DNA from: Amyloporia xantha
Lineage: Eukaryota; Basidiomycota; Agaricomycetes; Polyporales; Adustoporiaceae
Length of the DNA stretch: 64,000 bases
Reading direction: 5' to 3'
Assembly: GCA_036971615.1 (NCBI GenBank)
Contig: JAYKKR010000002.1
Location: 248,001-312,000 of the forward strand
In this document: piece after piece, positions 1 to 34,223 of the stretch
How positions within the stretch are numbered: the stretch's first letter is position 1
Layout of the letters: each line of letters opens with the position of its first letter
Notes under the pieces: generated by a model
What the model was told of the DNA's origin: nothing
Database searches by the model: none
What the model saw: only the letters and a program-made list of their open reading frames with translations
Made by a program: the position numbers and the translations under genes

Positions 1-2
1 CC

Positions 3-1071
3 TGGTGTGTACTCTTGGATGCTGTGGGCATCTACTCATTCTGCGCTGACCGGGAAGTAGTGCGCTTATCCTGGGACATTGACCGCTATTCTGATGCTAT
101 AGGCGTGGGCAACACCGGACAGAACGTGAATCTGGAGGCGCAGCTCAAGACTAAATGGCCGCCTCTCCTCCCAGACACCACCGTGGTTCTAGATGAACCC
201 TGCGTGCTCCTCGACCAGCACTCGCGCATCCTAGCATGGGTGCTTCCGGGCGTCCTTCATGTGAATCGCCAGGTGGGCGCATTCATCTTCCGCCATGCAC
301 CGCGCTCACTACGCTGTGTCGGCAGAGAGAGATACAATTGGCGACGGCCCACCTATCAACACAACTGATGCGTAAAGCCCCGGGGGTCAGTTGGCGAAAC
401 CATGAAGCATATTTCCGCGATCGATCAACCTGCACCACACCTCCGGGGACTGTCAATCTGTCTCCAGGATGGCACGCGCTGGGTCACACGGTACGCTGAC
501 GATCCCTTAACTCTGATGACTGGCGAATGACGGCGCATACATCCAGGGCCCATTGGACCCAATGCTGCCTTCGGCGAGCTTACGCGATAAAGATGGCCAG
601 AGTGGATGGCGATGGTTGACCGCCATCCGTGAATCAGCCGCCATCCTATCCGCCATGATGTCCATCATGCATCCCGACCTGTATGCTGCGGGACATACAT
701 GCATGGAGTCGCTTCTTGGCGAAGTGGAGTATCCCGCAATAGTAAGCGCTTGGTCTTCGATCTTCAATGGCGTTCAGGTCATCAGCAATCGCGAGACGCC
801 GCTACACCGCGATAAAAACTCGCGCAAGCAGTGGTTCGACCTTCTCACCACGGTAGGGAGCTACGGCGCATTGGAAATGCAGCTGGATGGTCCAAATATC
901 GCTATAGACTACAAGGCGGGTAGCGTAGTTGCGCTTTGCGGAAAGCTTCTGCGCCATGGCGTTCAGAGATGCGATGGAGAGCGCATATGCTACGCTTATT
1001 TTATGAGGGACTCAGTGCATGCCGCGATGAATGTCAAGGCACCGCACTGGATGGAGTGGACTTATGGTTGA
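3..1071 (+). CDS. TET/JBP-family 2-oxoglutarate/Fe(II) dioxygenase, 5' end missing
   Basis: Members of this family oxidise 5-methylcytosine or thymine in nuclear DNA using Fe(II) and 2-oxoglutarate. Three exons join in phase: from the window edge to 272, 326-490 and 547-1071 (stop 1069-1071). The introns are 273-325 and 491-546, with normal GT-AG borders. The frame stays open to base 3, so the gene starts outside the window; about 319 residues are visible. The double-stranded beta-helix signature is present: the iron-binding HRD (His codon 805-807, Asp 811-813), the distal His in RHGV (codon 955-957), and the 2-oxoglutarate Arg in GERICYAYFMRD (codon 982-984). The upstream block RILAWVLPGV and the downstream VSWRN and LSPGW blocks fit fungal KDZ-linked TET/JBP proteins. 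No disrupting change is visible. The gene converges on the KDZ transposase, with 80 bp between stops. Confidence 0.85.
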
Positions 1072-1151
1072 ATACACAGATCTGTATTTGTGTCAAGTCT
1101 ATGTTTGTGTATCTAGTAGGGTCGTGAATGGCGAACCATCACACACATGTA

Positions 1152-4100
1152 TTAAAGCGAGAAGCGGCATGCTCTGCCATGCGCGTCCACAGCGACCTGA
1201 CGGCGCGCATAGCATACATGACCTGGAGGCCCATAGAGGCGGGAGCGCCATAGGTTCGCCTTGTTATGGAAGCTCGCCTGCGTCCACGCCATCTCTGCCG
1301 TGACCATGACAAACTCCTCCGCCCACCTATCCTTACGTGATTTTGCACGGAACCAGTTGACGCGATGCACTGGCGCTCTGCAGTCAGCATTGCGGGCATT
1401 GGACGGACCACAAGCGCACTCACACTCCGTCAACCAGTTGGACTGCGTTGAATCGCCCGCAATGTCTACGGTCCATATCCAGGACAACTTGTCCTGCCGT
1501 GTTCCTCGGATGGAGTTGTCCAGCAGCGCGGTGATCGCCTTGAGGTCATCATGTTGAATGGCACGGAGGCGCGCTTTGATGGCATCAGTCGGATTCAGAG
1601 CGAGGATGGCGTGGCGGCTTTGACTGTAAATGCGCACGTTCTCTAGCACCGCCCTCTGCGTGGAGATGACCTCGTCCCAGGACCGGAGCTTTTGGCGCTG
1701 GCTCTTTGCATGACGAACCGCCGTACGAAACAGCACTGACTTGTAACCAATGGCGAGGCGAATCTGATGAAGGGCGTCATTGGCCTGCCCAATGCGCAAA
1801 CTCAACTCCTCCGAAGCGATGTCCTCTAAACCGCTGGCCACGACAACATCGTAGCCAAGCTGCGATGGAAGCGAAATGATGGCGCTCTCAGGCTGGATTC
1901 CAGAATCAATCTCACCGGTGTAAATCTCATCAAGAGGATTGACATCTTCCTCCAGTGCATCCCATTCAGACCCGTCATAAGCCTCTGAGGCGCCATCCCC
2001 ATCGGGCTCGGCCACAAGTGGAATGTACGAAGCGGCTTTGGACTCGAATGTCACTATACGCTTCTGAAGGCGCTGACGGCGCTCCTCCAGCGCAAGGCGG
2101 TCCGCCACCAGCGGATGCCGGCCCATCTTCCGTTTCAGTTGGCTAATGACCAACCTAAGACCTGTTGTGAGCTTGGCACCCGATGTTCAATGACGCTACC
2201 TACTGCAATTCCTGAATCTTCATGCCCGTGGCTATCCATGCAGCTACGCTCTGATGGCGATGTTGCGATGTTTCCGTTTGCGTTAGTTGAAGTTGGATCT
2301 GCATCCGGGTGGGTGCTGCGCCACATCATTACTCATGGCCGTACCCTATACTGTGAACTCTCACCCTTTCTCATCTGCACGTCAAAGACATCCATCGCGC
2401 TGATTTTAGCGTCACGCATGGCGAGCGCCTCGCCCTCAGCGGCTCGCCACTCTCCTAGCTGCTCCTCCGTGCTCGATCTCTCAATGAACTCCAACACATC
2501 CCCGCTCTCCGTGGCGCCGGCTTTGGCCTTTCGCCATTTCCTAACAAGGGTGTTCGCTGTTGAAGCCACAGTCAATCAACCTCTCCACCAATGTCAAGGT
2601 TGGCCCACCCATCCCGGTCAACTTCTTCCAATTGGAATCATTCATGTGATCGTCAATGACTTCCTTTCTATGTGCTGTGGTCATGCCGCGTGTGCTACCC
2701 GAAATGAGATTCAACGGCGCCCAAAGGGTTTCAATCACTTCGTCATCAATCTGACCAGCACCGGGAATGAAGTTGGGTGAGTAGCGAGGAAAGCATGTGT
2801 CTTGATGGCCGTGGACATGAAACAGGCCTATTCCGCGCCGTATCTCCACGTTCGGCGGCATGTGCAAATACTCACTCTCCCCAAACCGCTTCATGAGATT
2901 GATGCCGTATTGACACATGATGTCGTACATCACCAGCAGCACCTGGATACCCGCCATGGTGGCGAGCACCTCGCTCAGCGCGTAATCCATGTTCATCTGT
3001 CTGATGGCGGGTGTAAGTGAACAAAGGAAATAGCAAACCACTTACCTCTCGCCTTTCTGGAAATCAACCACCGCATGCGGCATGAAAAACCCATGGCGCG
3101 CACAGGCCGCGGCGCCAATCCCCGTGGCTTCAAGGTTATGGCGATCTGCATTCGCCTGGTTGACGGCACGATGATCGTGACAGAAGGATTTCTACATAGG
3201 CTATGAGCGTCCAACGGTTCATCCACTAGGAGTCGATCACGGACCTCTTTATGCTCGATGGCGACCGCGAGATGCTTCTTGTAGGTGTCATCGCCCACCA
3301 TGAAAGCGTCGCCATCGCTGAGAATGACGTCGTCCTCTGGGCGACGCATCTTGAGATGCTCCGCGCTAAAGTTGCCGTCCATTACGATGCTCCTCATGTA
3401 CTTCCATCTGCTATCGCGTTACACATGCCGCCCAAAAACGTCTTACATGGCTCACTGTACGGGGTCATCACGCCATCCGGAAGCGAGATTCACGCCAGGC
3501 TTGGGACATGCCGGGCACCCCAAAGCGAGGCCACCAGCTGGTATCGCGTTGGAGGCGCCATGACCATATCCATGCCATTTGCGGTATTTGAGGTTTCGCC
3601 ATTGGCGGGACACCCGCAGAAGCTCTCTGTAACGGTTCTAGCCCCTTCTCAACGGCGAAAACAGCTTCATATGCACATAGCGGCTTACCTGCACTGAATG
3701 CGGGAACGCGGAGTTTGTGACACATCGAAGCTTGCTGTAGTAATTCATCCCCGAGGTTTTGCACTCCTTGTTGGTAAGCAAAAATCATCCAACACCCGAA
3801 ATGTGAACGCAGTGCGTGGCCGCTTGGTGCTCCCAGGATAGAGGCCCATGTCCAATAGTTGCAGGTCTCGAGTGAGCCTGTTATCGCACCGACACCACAC
3901 AACGTCCAGGCTATGCATCCCCGTAACATCTACAATGGTCAAAGTGTCAAATGCGTAGTGACTTCGCGGCGCCGTCGAGTCCGCTTTGATTGGCTCTTCA
4001 TCCTCTTCATTGTCCCCGGCGTCACTCACGTCGTCGTCTTCGCCATCGCTATCAGCATCCCCATCCAGCGGCGTGATCGGGACTCCGCATCCACACATGG

Positions 4101-4697
4101 TTCGCCATCATGCCCGAGATGCATCCGCACCCCAACCTCCCGAAGCCACGCCGGTTCGAAGAACCCATCCGCCCACTTCTCCACCCGATGCAGCGGCATG
4201 CGGCGATGCGTCAACTGCAGGCAGTCCTCGCAATACACGGGGCGCCCAAAGCATTCCAAGCAGCGCCAATCGCCATGCGCATCAGCGCATTTGCTGCATC
4301 GTCTCTCACCTGGTGGAGCTTCTAGCTCGATGATGTGGCTTAGATACACATCGCGAAGTGGAAGCCATTCGCGCATAAAGTCGTTCTGCGACTGCCCCGC
4401 CTTCGGCGTTGACATTGAGCGACCCAAATAAGGCGACGGTACTCACCTTGTGCAGACTCTTCATCAGCATCACATCGTCAAACACCACATGCTCCTGCAC
4501 GAGTTCGGAATATGCGTCATGAGACGCGGCTTTAGAGGGGATTTCGACGGCGATCTTGATGCGCTTGTCGGCACATGCGCACGCGGTAGCGGTGCTTCCT
4601 TGGGAACGTATGTGACGGCGCCTCTTGCAGTTCGCCGTTCTTCGCGACGCACGAACACCGCATCGCCACTGACATGTTGCTTCTTCGTGCGGGCCAT
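1152..4697 (-). CDS. KDZ transposase with CxC2-like cysteine cluster; one single-base frameshift
   Basis: Predicted DDE-type transposase. Eleven exons join in phase: 4697-4583, 4529-4447, 4400-4030, 3961-3689, 3637-3456, 3407-3245, 3191-3046, 3000-2609, 2556-2365, 2315-2204 and 2154-1152, giving about 1010 residues. In order one sees MARTKKQ and RGAVTYVPKEAP at the N-terminus, then QNDFMREWLP, then a CxxC-rich zinc-binding cluster (RCSKC, RCLECF, YCEDC). Next come VDVTG, the first catalytic Asp in VMDGNF, CHDHRAVNQAN, YDIMCQY and FHVHGHQD. The second acidic motif is GQIDDEVIETLWAP, followed by RGMTTAHRKEVIDDHMNDS and the C-terminal QANDALHQIRLA block. The frame breaks only at 3780-3784: the conserved segment between DDF and ECKTS needs one more base in the A/T run. 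Everything else is open, so this is a recently active element, a barely dead one, or a base-call error. The 4582-4530 intron has a weak GTGCGC donor. Confidence 0.9.
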
Positions 4698-4972
4698 GGC
4701 CGTATCACTGCGGACAGATGACAACTGGCTTATTGTGATCCATGACAGCTTCCTTTTCATACTGAATGGCGATCTCTCACGCCCCTGCCTCCTGATCCCT
4801 TATCAACAACGGATCATATCCACGCGATCACCTTCAGATACTTGGCCGATGCTTATCTCCGACGGATCTTCGCCATGACCTTCCCTCGAGGCGATCACCC
4901 GATCCACCATCGACTCCTCAAATTCGCCTTGCATTTCGCCTTGGCCTACCAACCCATTCACCCCACGGCGCA
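4698..4972. promoter_or_regulatory. Shared intergenic region between KDZ transposase and a divergent gene
   Basis: These 275 bp separate the start codons of the transposase (-) and the small gene starting at 4973 (+), so they probably hold both promoters. An alternative ATG at 4876 opens a short frame that closes near 4996 in a different frame from the downstream gene. I see no clear TATA box. Role inferred from gene layout only. Confidence 0.35.
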
Positions 4973-5727
4973 ATGGCTCTCGCCTTGAAGAATCGCGAAC
5001 AGTCCCTCTCCAGCCTCATCGCTATCAACCGCCGACTGATCTCATACTATGCCTGGCGCTGCGAGCAGGCGCTAGCGACCATCATGTCTGTTGCCGCCGG
5101 TAGAGACAAGGTGGCTGGCTTCGACATCACCTTGGCGCGGTGGGAGATTGGCCTCCGCATGGAAATGGTAAGCTTCGCCTTCCCCAACGTGTCTGCTCTG
5201 ACGCTCAGCAGGAAGCCCTTCGCGACTGCCTTGGCCGCCTCACCCTCGTCGGCGTCACCGACGTCGAGCTCCCCGACGTCGTCCGCAAGATCAGCGACGC
5301 CACCGTCTTTGGGGCCGTCCCACGGATCCACGTCCTCGAGATACAGCCGTTCACGCCGCTCGCCTCGCCGCCATCCTTGCAGCTACAGAAGCTGCGCACA
5401 GAAACCGAGCCCGCGTGGTGGACTTGGCCAGACGACCCTCCCAGTCACCTTCCAGCATGGTGGAAGTATCCACTGCATGACAGAGTAAGTCGCCACCCCG
5501 CTCCCACCTTTTCAACACATTCATTCACATAAATTGCATCGATTGCCGCATAGCGTCGCGGCGACACCTATCAAGTCAACTACCGCGATATGAGAGCGGT
5601 CAGCCATCGATTGGATGACGTCGAACGCCTGGTCACCCGCTTCGCCGAGAGCCGCCATCGCGATGCCGGCGACCTCACAAGGATGTTGGACGCCTTCAAA
5701 GAGGTGCTGTTGCCAGATGAGGAGTGA
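4973..5727 (+). CDS. Unknown protein divergent from the KDZ transposase
   Basis: Three exons join in phase: 4973-5167, 5209-5484 and 5554-5727, with introns of 41 and 69 nt and consensus borders. The product is 214 residues. The N-terminal part looks helical (MALALKN..., with YYAWRCEQALATI). The middle is rich in Trp and Pro (WWTWPDDPP, WWKYP). The C-terminus is charged and predicted helical, ending in EVLLPDEE. I recognise no domain and no cysteine cluster. Base use, rich in GGCG and CGCC, resembles the flanking transposase. Together with the shared promoter region this suggests an accessory gene of the element, but that is inference. The start is the first ATG in this frame after the intergenic gap and could lie further upstream if another exon exists. 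Confidence 0.6.
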
Positions 5728-5809
5728 GACCGGGTCTCTGCGCGCCATGTCGTAGGTGGATCTCGCCGTCGTCTGTATGTATTTCTTGTCGCTGCCTTTA
5801 TGAGCACGA

Positions 5810-6240
5810 GTGCATGACGTCCCCAGCGTCTCCCATTTGTTCAATGGACCTTGTATTTAAGCGGCTGAATCACATTACCATCCAATCATGTGGATGGCGA
5901 TGCGATTCAGACGCTTAACTTCGGGGTAGCATTGACGAATGGCCGAGCTCGAGGACGCCAGCAAATCATGCTCTTTGGACATCGCGCCATGTCAAAGGTG
6001 GGTGTTTTCAGGTGGCGTATGTATCCGTTTCTGTCTGCGCGGTGAGTGCATAAATGCATGACGTCCTTCTGCGCCAGCCAATTCTTCAATGGCCTTGGTA
6101 TTCAAGCAGCTGAATCGGATGGCCATCCAACAATGGTTGGATGGCGATTCGATTCAGATGCTTTGATCCAGGGTAGCATTGAAGAATCATGCAGGTCGAG
6201 AACGCCAGCACATCACGCCGGCTGCGCACCATGTGCCTCG
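5810..6240. repeat. Two-copy tandem repeat, about 245 bp period, each with a long imperfect hairpin
   Basis: Blocks from about 5810 and 6055 share GCATGACGTC at the left, a hairpin, and GGGTAGCATTGA with a CGCCAGCA-type tail at the right. The hairpins at 5859-5916 and 6104-6163 have arms starting AAGC[GA]GCTGAATC and ending in the near-complement GATTCAGA[CT]GCTT, with an inner ATCCA...TGGAT stem. Function unknown. Confidence 0.75.
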
Positions 6241-6665
6241 CCTGCGCGCGCCATGCACGGCGCCATCGGATGGCGCATATTGCCGCTGAACGAGGCGGCT
6301 TCATCTATGACCTTCGGAGCCACAGGTATGCGGCTCTGAAGAGCATAGATGAAGGCGCCCTGTCTGGCGAGCCATAGCGCCATCTCACGGTGAGCATGAG
6401 CGCGCCATGCATGGCGCCATCGGATGGCGCTCATCGCTGCCGGACAGCGCAACTTCCATCTGTGGCCCTCCGAGCCGCAGGTATGCTGCTCCGAGTGACA
6501 CAGAGGAAGGCACCCTGTCTGGCGAGCCATAGCTCCATCTCCCAACAGCGAGCATCAGCGCGCATGCACTTCGCCATCGGATGGCGCCCGTTTCCGCCGG
6601 ACAAGGCCCATTTGACTTATGTCCTTCTGAGCCACAGGTATGCGGCTCGGAGGAACATAAGTCAG
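6240..6665. repeat. Three-copy hairpin array, about 155 bp period
   Basis: Three units each carry a palindrome of the form CGCCATCGGATGGCG (about 6259-6276, 6411-6430, 6571-6588). Each is followed by a longer hairpin (6302-6351, 6453-6509, 6614-6663) with the shared centre GAGCC[AG]CAGGTATGC[GT]GCTC. The outer arms differ between copies but remain complementary within each copy, for example CATCTATG...CATAGATG and GACTTATG...CATAAGTC. Such compensating divergence points to selection on, or generation by, the folded structure. Confidence 0.75.
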
Positions 6666-7048
6666 GTCTTCCTGTCTGGAGTCTGACTCTCTAACGTGAG
6701 TTTCAAATTTATGGTCTGCATGGATGCGGGATTCATGCAAGGCGCTGTTGGATAAAGCCATTAACTCCTTGCTCTCTACGTTCACCAGTGGAATCGAGTT
6801 GCCCTCCGCGCCATGAGTACTCCGGATGCAGCTGAATTGTCCATCAGCATCAGGGGTACTCTCAAAACGTGGACGGTGATTCGATTCCTCTGGCTGACCC
6901 AGGGCAGCAAGGATGAAATGGCCCAGTCCAACAGCGCCAGCACATCATAACGCCTGCGTGCCATACGCCTCACAATGTGGCAGGCAAGGTACGTGGCGCA
7001 TGGTTGCATAGCGCGTCTGGACATGGTGGCGCCATGATTCCATAGCGC

Positions 7049-7372
7049 ATGCTGCCGCTGGAGATGGCCATTGGATCTGTGTCCCGCAGAGGGTCCAGAC
7101 AGCTGGATCCTTTGAAGGACACATATCAGATGGCCCAGTCTCTGCGCGTGTCTTGGGTTGGGCGAGAATATGTATTAGATGCTGGTAGGTGGGTAGATCC
7201 AGTTCAAATAACCTTAGCGTACATGAAATATGTATAGCGGTAGAATATAGCGCGATGCTGCCGCTTGAGATGGCCATTGGATCTGTGTCCCACAAAGGGT
7301 CCACACAGCTGGATCCTTTGAAGGACACATGTAAGATGGCCCTGTCTCTGCGCGTGTCTTGGGTGGGGTGTA
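7049..7372. repeat. Two direct copies of a ~118-bp unit, 206 bp apart, each with a hairpin
   Basis: Copies at 7049-7166 and 7255-7372 are nearly identical. Each starts ATGCTGCCGCT and ends GCGTGTCTTGGGT. Inside each, GGATCTGTGTCCC...GGGTCC pairs with GGATCC...GGACACAT to form a hairpin. The spacer holds ordinary AT-richer sequence. No gene overlaps convincingly. Confidence 0.7.
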
Positions 7373-7587
7373 TGGAGCCGTCGGAAATGGCCAATCAGTC
7401 CTTGCGCTTTGAATTGTAGTCACACCACTGACCTGACCACACACGAAACGTCGTGATGAATGACAGATTGCAAAGCCTAATGGATGGCGAGGCATTATTA
7501 TTATTATACATACAGCATGAGATTTATTGAAATGCATATAATTAAAGCGTAGAAAAGGAAACAATAGGGCGGAATATACTACTTCAA

Positions 7588-8189
7588 GGCGAGAATATAC
7601 CACGATAATATGGCGCAGTCGGCCGCGCCGTGTCTACAGGCTATATTATAGCCCTCGGCCGACACTACTTGCAGGCGAGAATATACCACGATAATATGGC
7701 GCAGTCGGCCGCACCGTGTCTACAGGCTATATTATAGCCCTCGGCCGACACTACTTGCAGGCGAGAATATACCACAGAAATATGGCGCAGTCGGCCGCGC
7801 CGTATCTAAAGGCTATATTATAGCCCTCGGCCGACACTACTTGCAGGCGAGAATATACCACAGAAATATGGCGCAGTCGGCCGCGCCGTATCTAAAGGCT
7901 ATATTATAGCCCTCGGCCGACACTACTTGAAGGCGAGAATATACCACGATAATATGGCGCAGTCGGCCGCGCCGTGTCTACAGGCTATATTATAGCCCTC
8001 GGCCGACACTACTTGCAGGCGAGAATATACCACAGAAATATGGCGCAGTCGGCCGCGCCGTATCTAAAGGCTATATTATAGCCCTCGGCCGACACTACTT
8101 GAAGGCGAGAATATACCAGGGAAATATGGCGCACTCGGCCGCGCCGTATCTACAGGCTATATTATACCCTCTCGGCCGACCCTGCACTG
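7588..8189. repeat. 86-bp tandem satellite, seven copies
   Basis: Units start GGCGAGAATATACCA at 7588, 7674, 7760, 7846, 7932, 8018 and 8104, an exact 86-bp step; the last copy is degenerate. Each holds the odd palindrome GGCTATATTATAGCC and two copies of CGGCCG in TCGGCCG[CA] and CTCGGCCGAC. Copies alternate between a CACGATAATATG and a CACAGAAATATG variant, so amplification involved at least two unit types. The array is non-coding. Confidence 0.92.
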
Positions 8190-8874
8190 CAGGCTATAGC
8201 GATGGCGTCGGCCGACGTCCGCTCTCCTTACTAAGTAATAAAAATTTCACCCATATCTCTCCCTATAGAGTAGGCTATAATGACTGAATGGGCTCCATAA
8301 TCGTCGTGATTCAAAACCTCATAATTGAAAGTTCAATCTCCCCCCGCTGCCCTTCGTTGGCACCAGCTGGCGTAGTCATACTGAGCATTAGAGGCTCACC
8401 GACACGCGAACCGTCGGCAGATTCTCCCCTCGTAGGGTAATTCATTTTTGGTTCTTGAGTTCTCTTCTTCTCTATTATCTTTGGCTCTGTACCCATTGTC
8501 TCCCTCCTCATCAGTAGCTCTCAATCCGTCGCCTGTATTGTCGTTGTGTAGCACAATCACACTGAGAACCGCTGTTACTTACTTTTGTCATATGTCTGGG
8601 TTAAGATAGTTACTCAATAATCATTGCGAGATCCAGACGGCGGAAAACGGTGCTAACATTCGCTCAGAGCTATGAAAACACCTAAAAGTATCGCGTGAAC
8701 TTCGCTTGGTGGCTTACCACTCACTAATCAGTCTTTTCAACGTGTTCGTTTTGCGTTCCATCGACGAGGAAGTTATTCACCTCCTTTACCTGTAACTTGA
8801 AATAAATATCTACCCACCAGAGTTATCATATGTACACAAATGTAGCGATACGGTTTCAGAAGGCGCCGGCTTGG
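8190..8874. other. Intergenic, nothing recognised
   Basis: This stretch is AT-richer than the satellite before it. A short open frame on the minus strand (8511-8311) has no splice context or motif I recognise. No repeat or RNA gene seen. Confidence 0.5.
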
Positions 8875-9872
8875 TCACATAATTCGACAGTTCTGGCGGG
8901 GCTCTGGTGACCGATTGCGAGCGACACATTCTATATCCTGCGCAGCCTCATGCATATGAGCCTCCCAAGCGTCCAACGCAGCACAATCTAACAGTTCTTC
9001 TCTCGGCAGCCATTCATCACACTGGGGAGGCCAGCCTCTCCAGCGGACAAGATATTGGGTGCCTTGATATCGGTCTCGGCGTCCAACTATCGCTTCTACC
9101 TGCCACTCTTCTATTCCGGGCTCAGATACCACAGGGCCTGGACAGATGCTGTCAGCGATGGAGGCGGAGCCTTCGATAGGCGCTCTGCACTGAGGAAGGA
9201 TCTGGTTGGTTCGTATGCTCTTATCGGTCTCAAACCGCATCTGGGACTCACCTGACGATATTTCTTTACAGGAGATCGCCCAAAAACCCTTTTGCTTATA
9301 ATATGGCCACATACCGTACGATATGCGTCATTTACGGAGGGAAAAACCTTCCCTTCGAATTTTTGCTTGAGGGATTCAATTCTGCAACACCAGGATGTGT
9401 ACTTAACAAGGCAACTAAGTAAAAAAAGTTACTCACTTCCGGCATGTATCCGCCGTAAGTAAGAACTGGCGAATTTGTTGACCGGCGACCCAGGTGATTA
9501 TATCTTGAGCTACCTGGTGAAAAGGACGTGTGTGAATGCGCAAAGGCAGTCAGATCGCCACTATACTCACGCAATTGCGTATTTCATCTTGCACATAGAG
9601 TGAAGCTCGAGATCCAAGAGGAGCGTCGAACTCTATTGCATCTTCCTGGACTGGTATAAAAGCGCGGAACGTCAGAAAGCGTAAGTGCATTGACTTTAGA
9701 ACTAATGTACCCTGCCCCGTTAGAGCTTCGGCAGTGAACGGGCCAGTTGCCATTCGACGAAGACCAAACAAGACACCTGAGAAAATTCCGGCATAATGCA
9801 GAAGTTAGACTATAAGTGGGAGAGTGAGGGGGAACAGAACTTACGAGCGCGATACCCTGGTCGCAATTGCAT
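8875..9872 (-). CDS. Small single-chromodomain protein
   Basis: Five exons join in phase: 9872-9845, 9776-9571, 9513-9437, 9381-9252 and 9201-8875, giving 255 residues. The C-terminal third carries a chromodomain: EWQVEAIVGRRD, then TQYLVRWRGWP and DEWLPREEL, with the aromatic residues expected to cage methyl-lysine. This suggests binding to histone tails in the nucleus. The N-terminal two thirds (FGLRRMATGPFT, LRFLTFRAFIP, YVQDEIRN, FPSVNDAYRTVCGHI) match no domain I can name. A chromodomain alone would suggest a Ty3/Gypsy integrase tail. However, five in-phase exons and the absence of any integrase or reverse transcriptase next to it favour a separate spliced gene. The start is the first ATG of the exon; earlier exons are possible. 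Confidence 0.65.
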
Positions 9873-10669
9873 CGGTGAGTTGATTTACAGGTGGAGCGCA
9901 AGTGAGTGCCAGAAGGGACAGATGAAAGGAGACACAGAGCGAGTATTCCCGGCTTAAGTATTGAACGCAGACAAAGACAAGCAACGATGACGAACATTCG
10001 GATCTCTCATCTGCAAAGAGCCTTGAGGAGTTGGCACCAAACAATGCAAGCTGAAATTTCATATTACAGTCAATGCTGCATGCTCTCCACCCGGACGGAA
10101 ATGCACGAGGTCCTTATAAAGCCCTTGAACATGAGGACGCATGCATACACTAGGCGGACACTCGCTCGAAGTTGTCAACGTCGGTAATTATCTATGACTC
10201 ACAAACGAGACACATTCTAGCCTGTAGTGGATGGTCCTAAGCCTAGACGTTCTACTTCGCGATCGGCGTTGCTATTGTCCATGACCTCGTAACTCAAAGT
10301 TGCCTATTGTTGCCCATGTGGCATCGATGATGATGTAGATACAATCGGTTTGCACGTACAGACAAAGGAAGCCAGATGAAGCGCTAATAGACCAACAATG
10401 AATAATAACAAATTCAAAATGAGGACAACTCAGAGGAATTCCACCGGGGCCGAGTCGCTCTTAGCTTGGTCTTATTTGTTCCCTCCCCAAAAGCGGTATG
10501 ATAGTTCGCTGCCACTCGTCCTCGAGCCATCATGTCGACCATATCATTGTTCTACACTCCAGAATCCAGGCGCTGCTTTGACTCAAGCACGCTAGAGCAC
10601 AGACAGCTTGGATAAGCAGCGAGTTATCGGCTCTCCGCGGACCAATGTGTTATTGCGCCACGACAACAG
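9873..10669. other. Intergenic, nothing recognised
   Basis: No frame here shows coding character together with splice borders. It is mixed unique sequence leading to the left target duplication of the retroposon at 10670. Confidence 0.5.
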
Positions 10670-32499: not shown

Positions 32500-34223
32500 G
32501 TCCGAACAGCCTAAGGAGGTGCGCACCTCCTTGGTGTCTGATATAACGAGGTGCGAATTGTCTCTATATTTCGCCAACAGCTGGCTGACCGCTTGCAAGA
32601 CCTGAGCAACTCCAAGCAGAAATTAGACGAGAACGACAAGTTGCCTACGCAGGGGTCGACCCCACTGCGATGTTTCTCCACGATGGTCATCTTCTGCCGC
32701 TGCTTTGCCTGCTCCATTTCCAGCTGCGAGGGCACCACATAATACCTCTGGTACGAAACTCTATTGCTAGAGCATGTGCGACCGTACATCTACTTGTCAG
32801 ATAGGAGACGCTACTGGTCTCATAGGATATCCCTCAGGTCGCTCTGCGGAACGACCACTCTTCTAACGATCCTTCGTCGAGGGAAATGTCAAAGCCTTGA
32901 CCGCCGGAATACAGCAGTTCTTTGCCAGAGCTATGACGTATGGAGCGACAGACTCCCGCCCTCCGCAACGCTGATTCCCCAGCCGGACGTTCGGAACATT
33001 CTGGATTGGCTAGAGTACGTGGGTCTGCTAGAGTTCCTAAGGAGAGTGGGCATACATAGCCGAGTGAACACCATGATGGCAAGGGATAGGTGGGTACCCG
33101 TTCCGTCGGGAGCTTGTGTTGGTCTCAATTTCTCATGCCCGCCAGTGTTCGTGCCCGTCTTGAAACCCAGCAAGGCATCTCCTTCACAGAATTCACCTAC
33201 CAGCTCCTCCAGTCATACGATTTCATCACTCTGCACCAAACTGCAGGGTGCAACATACAAATAGGCGGATCCGATCAATGGTGCATCATCGTGGCCGGCA
33301 TAGATCTCATCAACCGGGTGAACGCGATGGCCACCACTGAGGAGCGTCCGGAGAAGGGCTTCGGGATTGTCACGTCATTGCTGACGACAGCATCGGGAGA
33401 GAAGCTCGGCAAAAGTGCCGGAAATGCAGTGTCTCTGGACGAGCGAGTCACGAACGTCTTCGACTTCTATCAAGTCGGTGGGGAATCTGTGTTCCGATAC
33501 GGAACTAGCACTGAACGCCCATTTGCGCGCAGTTCTTCCTCAGAACACTGGATGCAGACGTTGGCCGATATCTCAAGATGTTCACCTTATTACCACTGCC
33601 AGAAATCGACTCGGTCCTGGAGACCCACTCCGCGAGTATCTCCGCAATTTGTCGTACGTTCTGCGCTGATTGTCTGCCTATCTTTAGCGCAGCCCAGAGA
33701 AGAGAACGGGGCAGTGACTTCTAGCTGCGGAGGCGATTGAGCTAGTGCATGGCAGTGCGTCCTGATCGCTTCCCTGTCTCGTTCATACATGCTCACTTCT
33801 ATGCGATCAGGCAGAGGATGGCGTTCGCCGTGCCCGCACCGCAACATCGGTGCTCTTCGACAATGATATCGCAACAATCAATGCCGATGGGCTCGTTGAC
33901 GCGTTGCCAGGGCTTCCGTTCTTTCACACCTGCGGAGAGACGGAGCTGTTCAGCACTCCGCTGTCAAAACTGGCCGTTCGCTTCCAACTTGCGGCCTCTA
34001 ATAGTGAGTGCGTATCGCCGCTCTTCCTAGCCGTCTGACTCAGTCATTGAACCACTCCCATAGGCGTGGCCCGTCAACTCGTTTCTACCAAGGGGCTGTA
34101 CATCAACAACCGCGCAGTGACGCACCCACACCAAAAGTTGGTTCCCAGCGATCTCATAGATGGCTGAGTAGCGATCTTCCGCGCGCGTTTAAACAAAAGC
34201 AGGCAGTGGCGGTCCTGACCTGA
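32500..34223 (+). pseudogene. Mitochondrial tyrosyl-tRNA synthetase pseudogene
   Basis: Class I TyrRS segments occur in order. VAYAGVDPTA with LHDGHLLPL (the HIGH region, about 32640-32700) comes first, then ATGLIGYPSGR with a stop after AERPLF (about 32860), and AGIQQFFARAMT. RVGIHSRVNTMMARD, GISFTEFTYQLLQSYDF and IQIGGSDQW (about 33270) follow. LLTTASGEKLGKSAGNAV (KMSKS-like, about 33400), [19 protein letters not shown] and ELFSTPLSKLAVRF come next. The RNA-binding end, QLVSTKGLYINNRAV, has a stop after DLIDG (about 34170). An earlier in-frame TAG lies at about 32625. Exon borders in the catalytic centre remain usable, so this is a fairly young relic of the MSY1-type gene. The Gly after GGSDQW is replaced by Cys. 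Confidence 0.8.

What the first reader, a model, noticed from the sequence alone, without database searches (positions are those of the whole stretch)
3..4697. TET/JBP dioxygenase gene tail to tail with a near-intact KDZ transposase
The sequence shows a dioxygenase with all iron and 2-oxoglutarate ligands in place, converging with an 80-bp gap on a transposase with its acidic motifs and cysteine cluster in place. Linkage of these two families is established for Agaricomycetes. What is notable is that both genes read through all exons (one base aside), so this copy may still modify bases and move. A mobile element carrying its own DNA-base oxidase could alter methylation of itself or its hosts.
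Basis: partly seen in the sequence, partly recalled or inferred. Interest (0 to 1): 0.82.

Follow-up and report, generated by a model that had tools for sequence, protein, structure and literature searches.

The report
Jumping element with TET DNA oxidase
This is one copy of a large, recently active fungal jumping element that carries an intact gene for a DNA-base-oxidising (TET) enzyme next to its transposase gene; elements of this kind are already known, but here the whole element, its ends and methylation-like mutation scars on its copies could be read.

Summary
The TET/JBP gene and the KDZ transposase gene are real and converge with 80 bp between them. They belong to one 18,019-bp DNA transposon (C12:238277-256295; window -9723 to 8295) with about 640-bp inverted terminal repeats built largely of 86-bp units and a 7-bp target duplication, CATAATC. 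Of 67 TET loci read, 35 belong to its family (32 of them at least 97.7% identical in the last exon); 17 of 21 end pairs show perfect 7-bp duplications. The transposase of this copy breaks frame twice, so it probably needs proteins from other copies to move. Two further genes upstream (HMG-box-like; cysteine-cluster/coiled-coil) are conserved. TET is under purifying selection (dN/dS about 0.08 against a sister family, dS near saturation). Yet the copies mutate CpG to TpG about ten times more often than other cytosines, in all 11 one-kb bins examined and also at the ends, so TET has not kept them free of methylation-type decay. TET-bearing KDZ elements of Agaricomycetes are published; this is a new member with unusually long terminal repeats.

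The parts
1..8295 (.). Right-hand part of the 18,019-bp transposon (whole element C12:238277-256295, window -9723 to 8295; the left 9.7 kb lie outside the window)
   Evidence: Inverted repeats, end search, 7-bp duplication CATAATC on both sides
1..4 (+). End of TET exon 1 (exon is window -194 to 4)
   Evidence: Gene model; exon conserved in sister family, 73.5% aa identity, omega 0.15
61..272 (+). TET exon 2
   Evidence: Gene model with GT-AG introns at 5-60 and 273-325; omega 0.087 over 61 codons
326..490 (+). TET exon 3
   Evidence: Gene model with introns 273-325 and 491-546; splice dinucleotides kept in 18 of 18 other copies
547..1071 (+). TET exon 4, catalytic part with HxD, H and R
   Evidence: PF12851, CcTet alignment, dN/dS 0.074-0.080 to sister family
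1152..4697 (-). KDZ transposase gene, frame broken twice in this copy
   Evidence: PF18758, PF18803; tblastn with P0012; start codon near 4697 read
3757..4095 (-). CxC2 stretch holding the two frame changes
   Evidence: Frames -3, -2, -1 in succession
6246..6679 (.). About 155-157-bp tandem repeats between transposase gene and right end, 2.6-2.8 copies
   Evidence: Tandem Repeats Finder
7578..8180 (.). Array of 7.0 copies of an 86-bp unit, overlapping the right inverted repeat
   Evidence: Tandem Repeats Finder
7652..8295 (.). Right inverted terminal repeat (alignment 7652-8291, 92.4% over 644 columns, to window -9719..-9076); end 5'-...GACTGAATGGGCTC-3'
8296..8302 (.). 7-bp target-site duplication CATAATC (right copy)
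   Evidence: sequence

Best explanation
A copy of a TET-bearing, Kyakuja-like KDZ transposon. It moves by cutting at its ends (5'-CACACC...GGGCTC-3') and leaves 7-bp target duplications. Its TET protein, together with an HMG-box-like and a cysteine-cluster protein of the same element, most likely works in trans: it oxidises 5-methylcytosine on element DNA so that at least some source copies stay expressed or movable, while most new copies become methylated and decay. This copy has intact ends and an intact TET gene but a broken transposase frame, so it is probably non-autonomous. Shown by sequence: element limits, copies, duplications, TET frame, conservation of TET and accessory genes, CpG decay. 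Inferred: enzyme activity, action in trans, anti-silencing role.
For: Ends: 157 within one mismatch, reversed-pattern control 0. Perfect 7-bp duplications in 17 of 21 end pairs, 0 of 420 mismatched pairings. Copies 98.5-99.3% identical over most of the element. 74 of 114 Tet_JBP matches, and 67 of 79 over the cut-off, are convergent with a KDZ match at 1.6-1.9 kb. TET intact in ours and 14 of 18 other copies. dN/dS of exon 4 to the sister family 0.074-0.080; ten of 12 accessory-gene exon pieces give omega 0.06-0.40. Residues equivalent to CcTet D337 kept and G331 = S.
Against: CpG decay is strong despite intact TET genes and the ends are not visibly spared. Within the young family non-synonymous changes are not depleted (36 N, 23 S). 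dS to the sister family is near saturation, so the dN/dS values are rough. No expression, methylation or enzyme data. No tree places the transposase among Kyakuja, Dileera and Zisupton.
Confidence: 0.7

Rival explanations
1. TET is a passenger: it travels with the element without helping it and looks intact because the copies are young.
For: Within the young family changes look near neutral (36 N, 23 S); 3 of 18 other copies have frameshifts in TET and one has an insertion.
Against: Between families, exon 4 has dN/dS 0.074-0.080 and earlier exons 0.087-0.15; the gene pair keeps order and spacing in 74 of 114 matches, across families differing by about half of their residues.
Confidence: 0.15
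2. TET serves the host (for example shaping methylation of the genome at large), and the element is only its vehicle.
For: In Laccaria and Coprinopsis oxidised methylcytosine is found on retrotransposons too (Kojima, section 4.2; PMC8889193, passages).
Against: Genes are in many near-identical copies inside element ends; no copy outside the element was shown to be fixed or single.
Confidence: 0.1
3. The CpG-to-TpG excess does not come from methylation but from a general mutation bias or from old differences among source copies.
For: No methylation data and no TET-free repeat family as control; family f6 shows only a non-significant excess (5 of 104 against 4 of 269).
Against: Excess in all four NCG contexts (0.058-0.107) against at most 0.022 elsewhere, and mostly in single copies (115 of 138); sister family 22 of 94 against 4 of 269; DNA methylase matches in the genome (4 places).
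Confidence: 0.12
4. The two frame changes in the transposase are assembly errors and this copy is autonomous.
For: Single-base length differences among copies sit in short homopolymer runs.
Against: Copies differ from one another in which places break, as real decay would give.
Confidence: 0.25

Closest known systems
TET-bearing Kyakuja transposons of Agaricomycetes (Kojima 2025, PMC12730594; Iyer et al. 2014, recalled)
   Same: KDZ transposase plus AG-type TET gene, 7-bp target duplications, left end beginning CA, mushroom-type fungi
   Different: Kojima reports 5'-CA..TG-3' termini and no inverted repeats for the two Laccaria families; here the ends are 5'-CACACC...GGGCTC-3' with about 640-bp inverted repeats built largely of 86-bp units
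CcTet of Coprinopsis cinerea (7vpn, 8jkk)
   Same: Catalytic region aligns with HxD, H, R and the D337 equivalent
   Different: Ser at the G331 position; 366 aa against 415-430-residue chains; activity not tested
KDZ1-KDZ3 of Cryptococcus neoformans (PMC12810828, passages)
   Same: Large KDZ elements with inverted repeats, seen to move
   Different: About 9-11 kb, 139-241-bp repeats, CxC1 domain, 4-8-bp duplications; no TET gene mentioned in the passages shown
KDZ and KDZ-TET proteins of Sparassis crispa (P0012, P0011)
   Same: 45% identity over 98% of the stitched query; P0011 joins TET and KDZ domains in one annotated protein

Membership tests
KDZ superfamily DNA transposon | KDZ transposase domain | tested here: met
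   PF18758, 106.2 bits, cut-off 26.6
KDZ superfamily DNA transposon | Associated cysteine cluster (CxC1-CxC6 type) | tested here: met
   CxC2 PF18803, 66.3 bits
KDZ superfamily DNA transposon | Discrete ends with target duplication | tested here: met
   17 of 21 end pairs with perfect 7-bp duplication
Kyakuja, TET-bearing (Kojima 2025) | 7-bp target duplication | tested here: met
   Kojima section 3.2.1
Kyakuja, TET-bearing (Kojima 2025) | AG-type TET (HxD; Gly or Ser at 331; Asp at 337) | tested here: met
   Alignment against the description
Kyakuja, TET-bearing (Kojima 2025) | 5'-CA..TG-3' termini without inverted repeats (described for two Laccaria families, not stated as defining) | tested here: not met
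   Ends CACACC...GGGCTC with long inverted repeats
Kyakuja, TET-bearing (Kojima 2025) | Transposase placed in the Kyakuja branch of the KDZ tree | not tested
   No labelled Kyakuja, Dileera and Zisupton reference set was at hand; hence 'Kyakuja-like'
Active TET dioxygenase | Fe(II) and 2-oxoglutarate ligands in an open frame | tested here: met
Active TET dioxygenase | Oxidation of 5mC | not testable with these tools
   Needs enzyme assay

The most novel reading that the evidence does not exclude
The element carries a conserved anti-silencing set (TET, an HMG-box-like protein and a cysteine-cluster coiled-coil protein) that acts in trans on the CpG-rich 86-bp terminal arrays (CpG observed/expected 1.40 in the left repeat, 1.04 in the whole element), oxidising methylated CpGs so that the transposase can bind, much as methylation of repeated end sites gates En/Spm elements in plants (recalled). 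Most copies would be methylated and decaying, with rare demethylation episodes releasing bursts.
Probability: 0.15. Interest if true: 0.75.

Novelty: new member of a known kind. Interest (0 to 1): 0.36.

Why it matters
TET genes on transposons are thought to help elements escape silencing, which Kojima (section 4.2) says is not experimentally validated. A young family with many near-identical copies, defined ends and a readable CpG-decay record in one genome is a good test bed: methylation, oxidised bases and movement can be compared among copies with intact TET, broken TET and no TET. The decay signature already argues against the simplest idea, that TET keeps its own copies unmethylated.

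Tried and rejected
Tried without result: relatives of the HMG-box-like protein in the protein collection, none at E <= 0.001, so its spread in other fungi is open here. Pfam gives only weak matches for the accessory proteins: HMG_box_2 18.3 bits (cut-off 22.4) and Zn_clus 13.8 bits (cut-off 21); both names are tentative. The flank 8700-10000 matched only itself in the genome, so it could not serve as a TET-free repeat control; no other control repeat was obtained. Family f1 gave no usable count in the CpG test. Rejected: that the frame change near window 305-325 is a frameshift (it is explained by a 53-bp GT-AG intron); that unlinked Tet_JBP matches all belong to this family (the one looked at, L117, has a different dioxygenase-like frame); that CpGs at the ends are clearly spared. 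The host was not identified. Nearest named TET proteins are from Grifola frondosa and Wolfiporia cocos and the best transposase hits from Sparassis crispa, which suggests Polyporales (inference).

Full report
What is there. The window is C12:248001-312000 of a 46.8-Mb genome in 60 contigs. The two genes of the finding are real: Tet_JBP at 520-1071 on the plus strand, KDZ core and CxC2 cluster on the minus strand, with 80 bp between the ends of the two frames. It has four exons, -194..4, 61-272, 326-490 and 547-1071, with introns of 56, 53 and 56 bp that begin GT and end AG, and gives 366 aa without a stop. The six splice dinucleotides are kept in 18 of 18 other copies read. The catalytic part aligns to CcTet over HxD, H and R. 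By that alignment the residue equivalent to Asp337 is kept and Gly331 is Ser, both of which Kojima reports for Kyakuja-borne TETs.

The transposase gene of this copy is less healthy. Aligned to a Sparassis KDZ protein (P0012; 45% identity to the stitched query) its frame changes twice within the CxC2 part without room for an intron. Copy L020 covers query residues 19-469 in one frame; other copies have breaks of their own. This copy is probably non-autonomous, unless the assembly is wrong there.

The element. Eighteen other copies, which I picked mainly from hits scoring like ours and not at random, are 98.5-99.3% identical to ours in their long alignments, far beyond the finding. Self-comparison found inverted repeats, 92.4% identical over 644 columns, overlapping an array of 7.0 copies of an 86-bp unit on the right. 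A search for the end sequence found 157 ends within one mismatch and none for the reversed control; the right-hand 23 bases were found 106 times within one mismatch. I fetched 20 further end pairs chosen from the listed ends. With the ends set at CACACC and GGGCTC, 17 of 21 pairs including ours have a perfect 7-bp duplication, one matches at 6 of 7, and three do not (4, 2 and 0 of 7; the first of these is a palindromic pair). Mismatched pairings give 0 of 420. In copy L027 a second element sits in the transposase gene at window 3644; the target CTAGCCC is present there in our copy and on both sides of that insertion.

Other genes. Upstream of TET the element carries two more genes: one on the minus strand with an HMG-box-like segment (HMG_box_2 18.3 bits, below cut-off), one on the plus strand with a cysteine cluster resembling Zn(2)Cys(6), below cut-off, and a coiled-coil-like stretch (coiled coil judged by eye). 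Matching segments lie in the same order in the sister family and in two more distant families. Of 12 exon pieces compared with the sister family, 10 give omega 0.06-0.40 and two are saturated; one sister piece shows one stop in the aligned stretch. From memory, Iyer et al. 2014 mention a divergent HMG domain in such elements, so I do not claim this as new; Kojima's text does not contain the word HMG.

Linkage. Of 114 Tet_JBP matches, 74 are convergent with a KDZ match within 4 kb, all at 1.6-1.9 kb; of the 79 over the cut-off, 67 are. The KDZ table listed 150 of 174 matches, so these are lower bounds; of those 150, 74 are linked to TET and 76 are not. Of the 79 TET hits over the cut-off I read 67: 35 fall in our family, 10 in a sister family, 19 and 3 in two others.

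Selection and decay. TET exon 4 of our copy against sister copies gives dN/dS 0.074-0.080 with dS 1.9-2.3, near saturation; against the intermediate copy L109 0.31 and against L113 0.64. Within our family 36 non-synonymous, 23 synonymous and 2 stop changes were counted over variable sites at codon positions 22/13/25. One of 35 copies has an early stop in this exon; 13 others end two residues short. Over the whole TET gene, ours and 14 of 18 other copies are intact; L014, L023 and L027 have frameshifts and L016 has an insertion.

Among 19 copies, 300 variants were counted over the 10.7-kb core. C-to-T changes number 138 for 1620 CpG sites and 35 for 3998 other C/G sites (odds ratio 10.5). All 11 one-kb bins show CpG transitions, at 5-13% of their CpG sites. 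Private changes: 119 CpG transitions against 86 changes outside CpG, 40 of the latter in L018 alone. The element has CpG observed/expected 1.04, so the lineage that spreads has not lost its CpGs. Young copies decaying at CpG from a CpG-rich source is what cytosine methylation after insertion would give; it is also known for repeats without TET in other organisms (general knowledge), so it is not evidence for TET action. At the ends, a CpG-rich 34-base segment is found exactly 95 times and 141 times within three mismatches, a CpG-free one 100 and 175 times; of the 100 exact CpG-free segments, 90 have the exact CpG-rich segment beside them, and five of the ten exceptions lie in one tandem array on C23. 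All five single-mismatch CpG-segment rows shown are CpG transitions. Taking the other five exceptions as one change each in 12 CpG bases of 95 ends gives about 0.0044 per site, close to the private rate in the core (0.0043), so the ends are not visibly spared; this is a rough estimate. The sister family shows the same excess, 22 of 94 against 4 of 269; family f6 does not reach significance, 5 of 104 against 4 of 269 (p 0.12); f1 gave no count. The genome has DNA methylase matches at four places.

Mechanism. The mobile part is well supported. That TET acts on the element is inferred from its conservation and from the known activity of CcTet. The decay result means that if TET fights silencing, it does so incompletely, early, or only for source copies. 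Consistent with this, passages of PMC8889193 report that most of the 46 Laccaria TET genes carry oxidised methylcytosine and only four, with low levels, were detectably expressed.

Known or new. TET-bearing KDZ elements are established (Kojima 2025, PMC12730594: parts 1-4 of 7 of the text, section 4.2 and the legends read; Iyer et al. 2014 not held, recalled). PMC8889193, PMC12810828, PMC9674265, PMC8290104 and PMC7641404 were seen as passages only. What is added here is a fully delimited family with long repeat-built inverted repeats, conserved accessory genes and a record of methylation-type decay. I file it under the KDZ superfamily as a new, Kyakuja-like member; a Kyakuja label would need a transposase tree, and its ends differ from those Kojima describes for Laccaria.

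Noticed in passing
L016:2615-5111 (target at window 329-336): Copy L016 carries an insertion of about 2.5 kb in TET exon 3 flanked by an 8-bp duplication (GAGATACA), with inverted-looking ends; possibly a hAT-type element (type recalled).
   Followed up: partly
G000:C23:349426-374309: Five element ends in the same orientation about 6.2 kb apart, as if a shortened element had been tandemly amplified.
   Followed up: no
G000:C12:2372941-2547577: Many element ends crowd into this stretch, at least one element nested in another, suggesting a repeat-rich block.
   Followed up: no
L056/L057 (G000:C1:3938189-3941621): An element-like 3.4-kb stretch with two left-type outer ends and flanks that mirror each other, possibly a palindromic rearrangement.
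   Followed up: no
L117:862-1287 (minus): One of the weak Tet_JBP matches not linked to KDZ: a different dioxygenase-like frame, perhaps another repeat-borne family.
   Followed up: partly
window 8296-8302 and G000:C45:49186-49208: A right end identical over 23 bases to ours lies about 7 kb from the TET gene of a sister-family copy, although TET proteins differ by about 23%; the two families may share end recognition.
   Followed up: no
window 8875-9327 (minus): Open frame resembling a retrotransposon chromodomain, in DNA that matched only itself in the genome, just right of the element (resemblance recalled).
   Followed up: no
window 33090-33740 (plus): Open frame resembling part of a tyrosyl-tRNA synthetase, so the DNA right of the element looks largely genic (resemblance recalled).
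   Followed up: no
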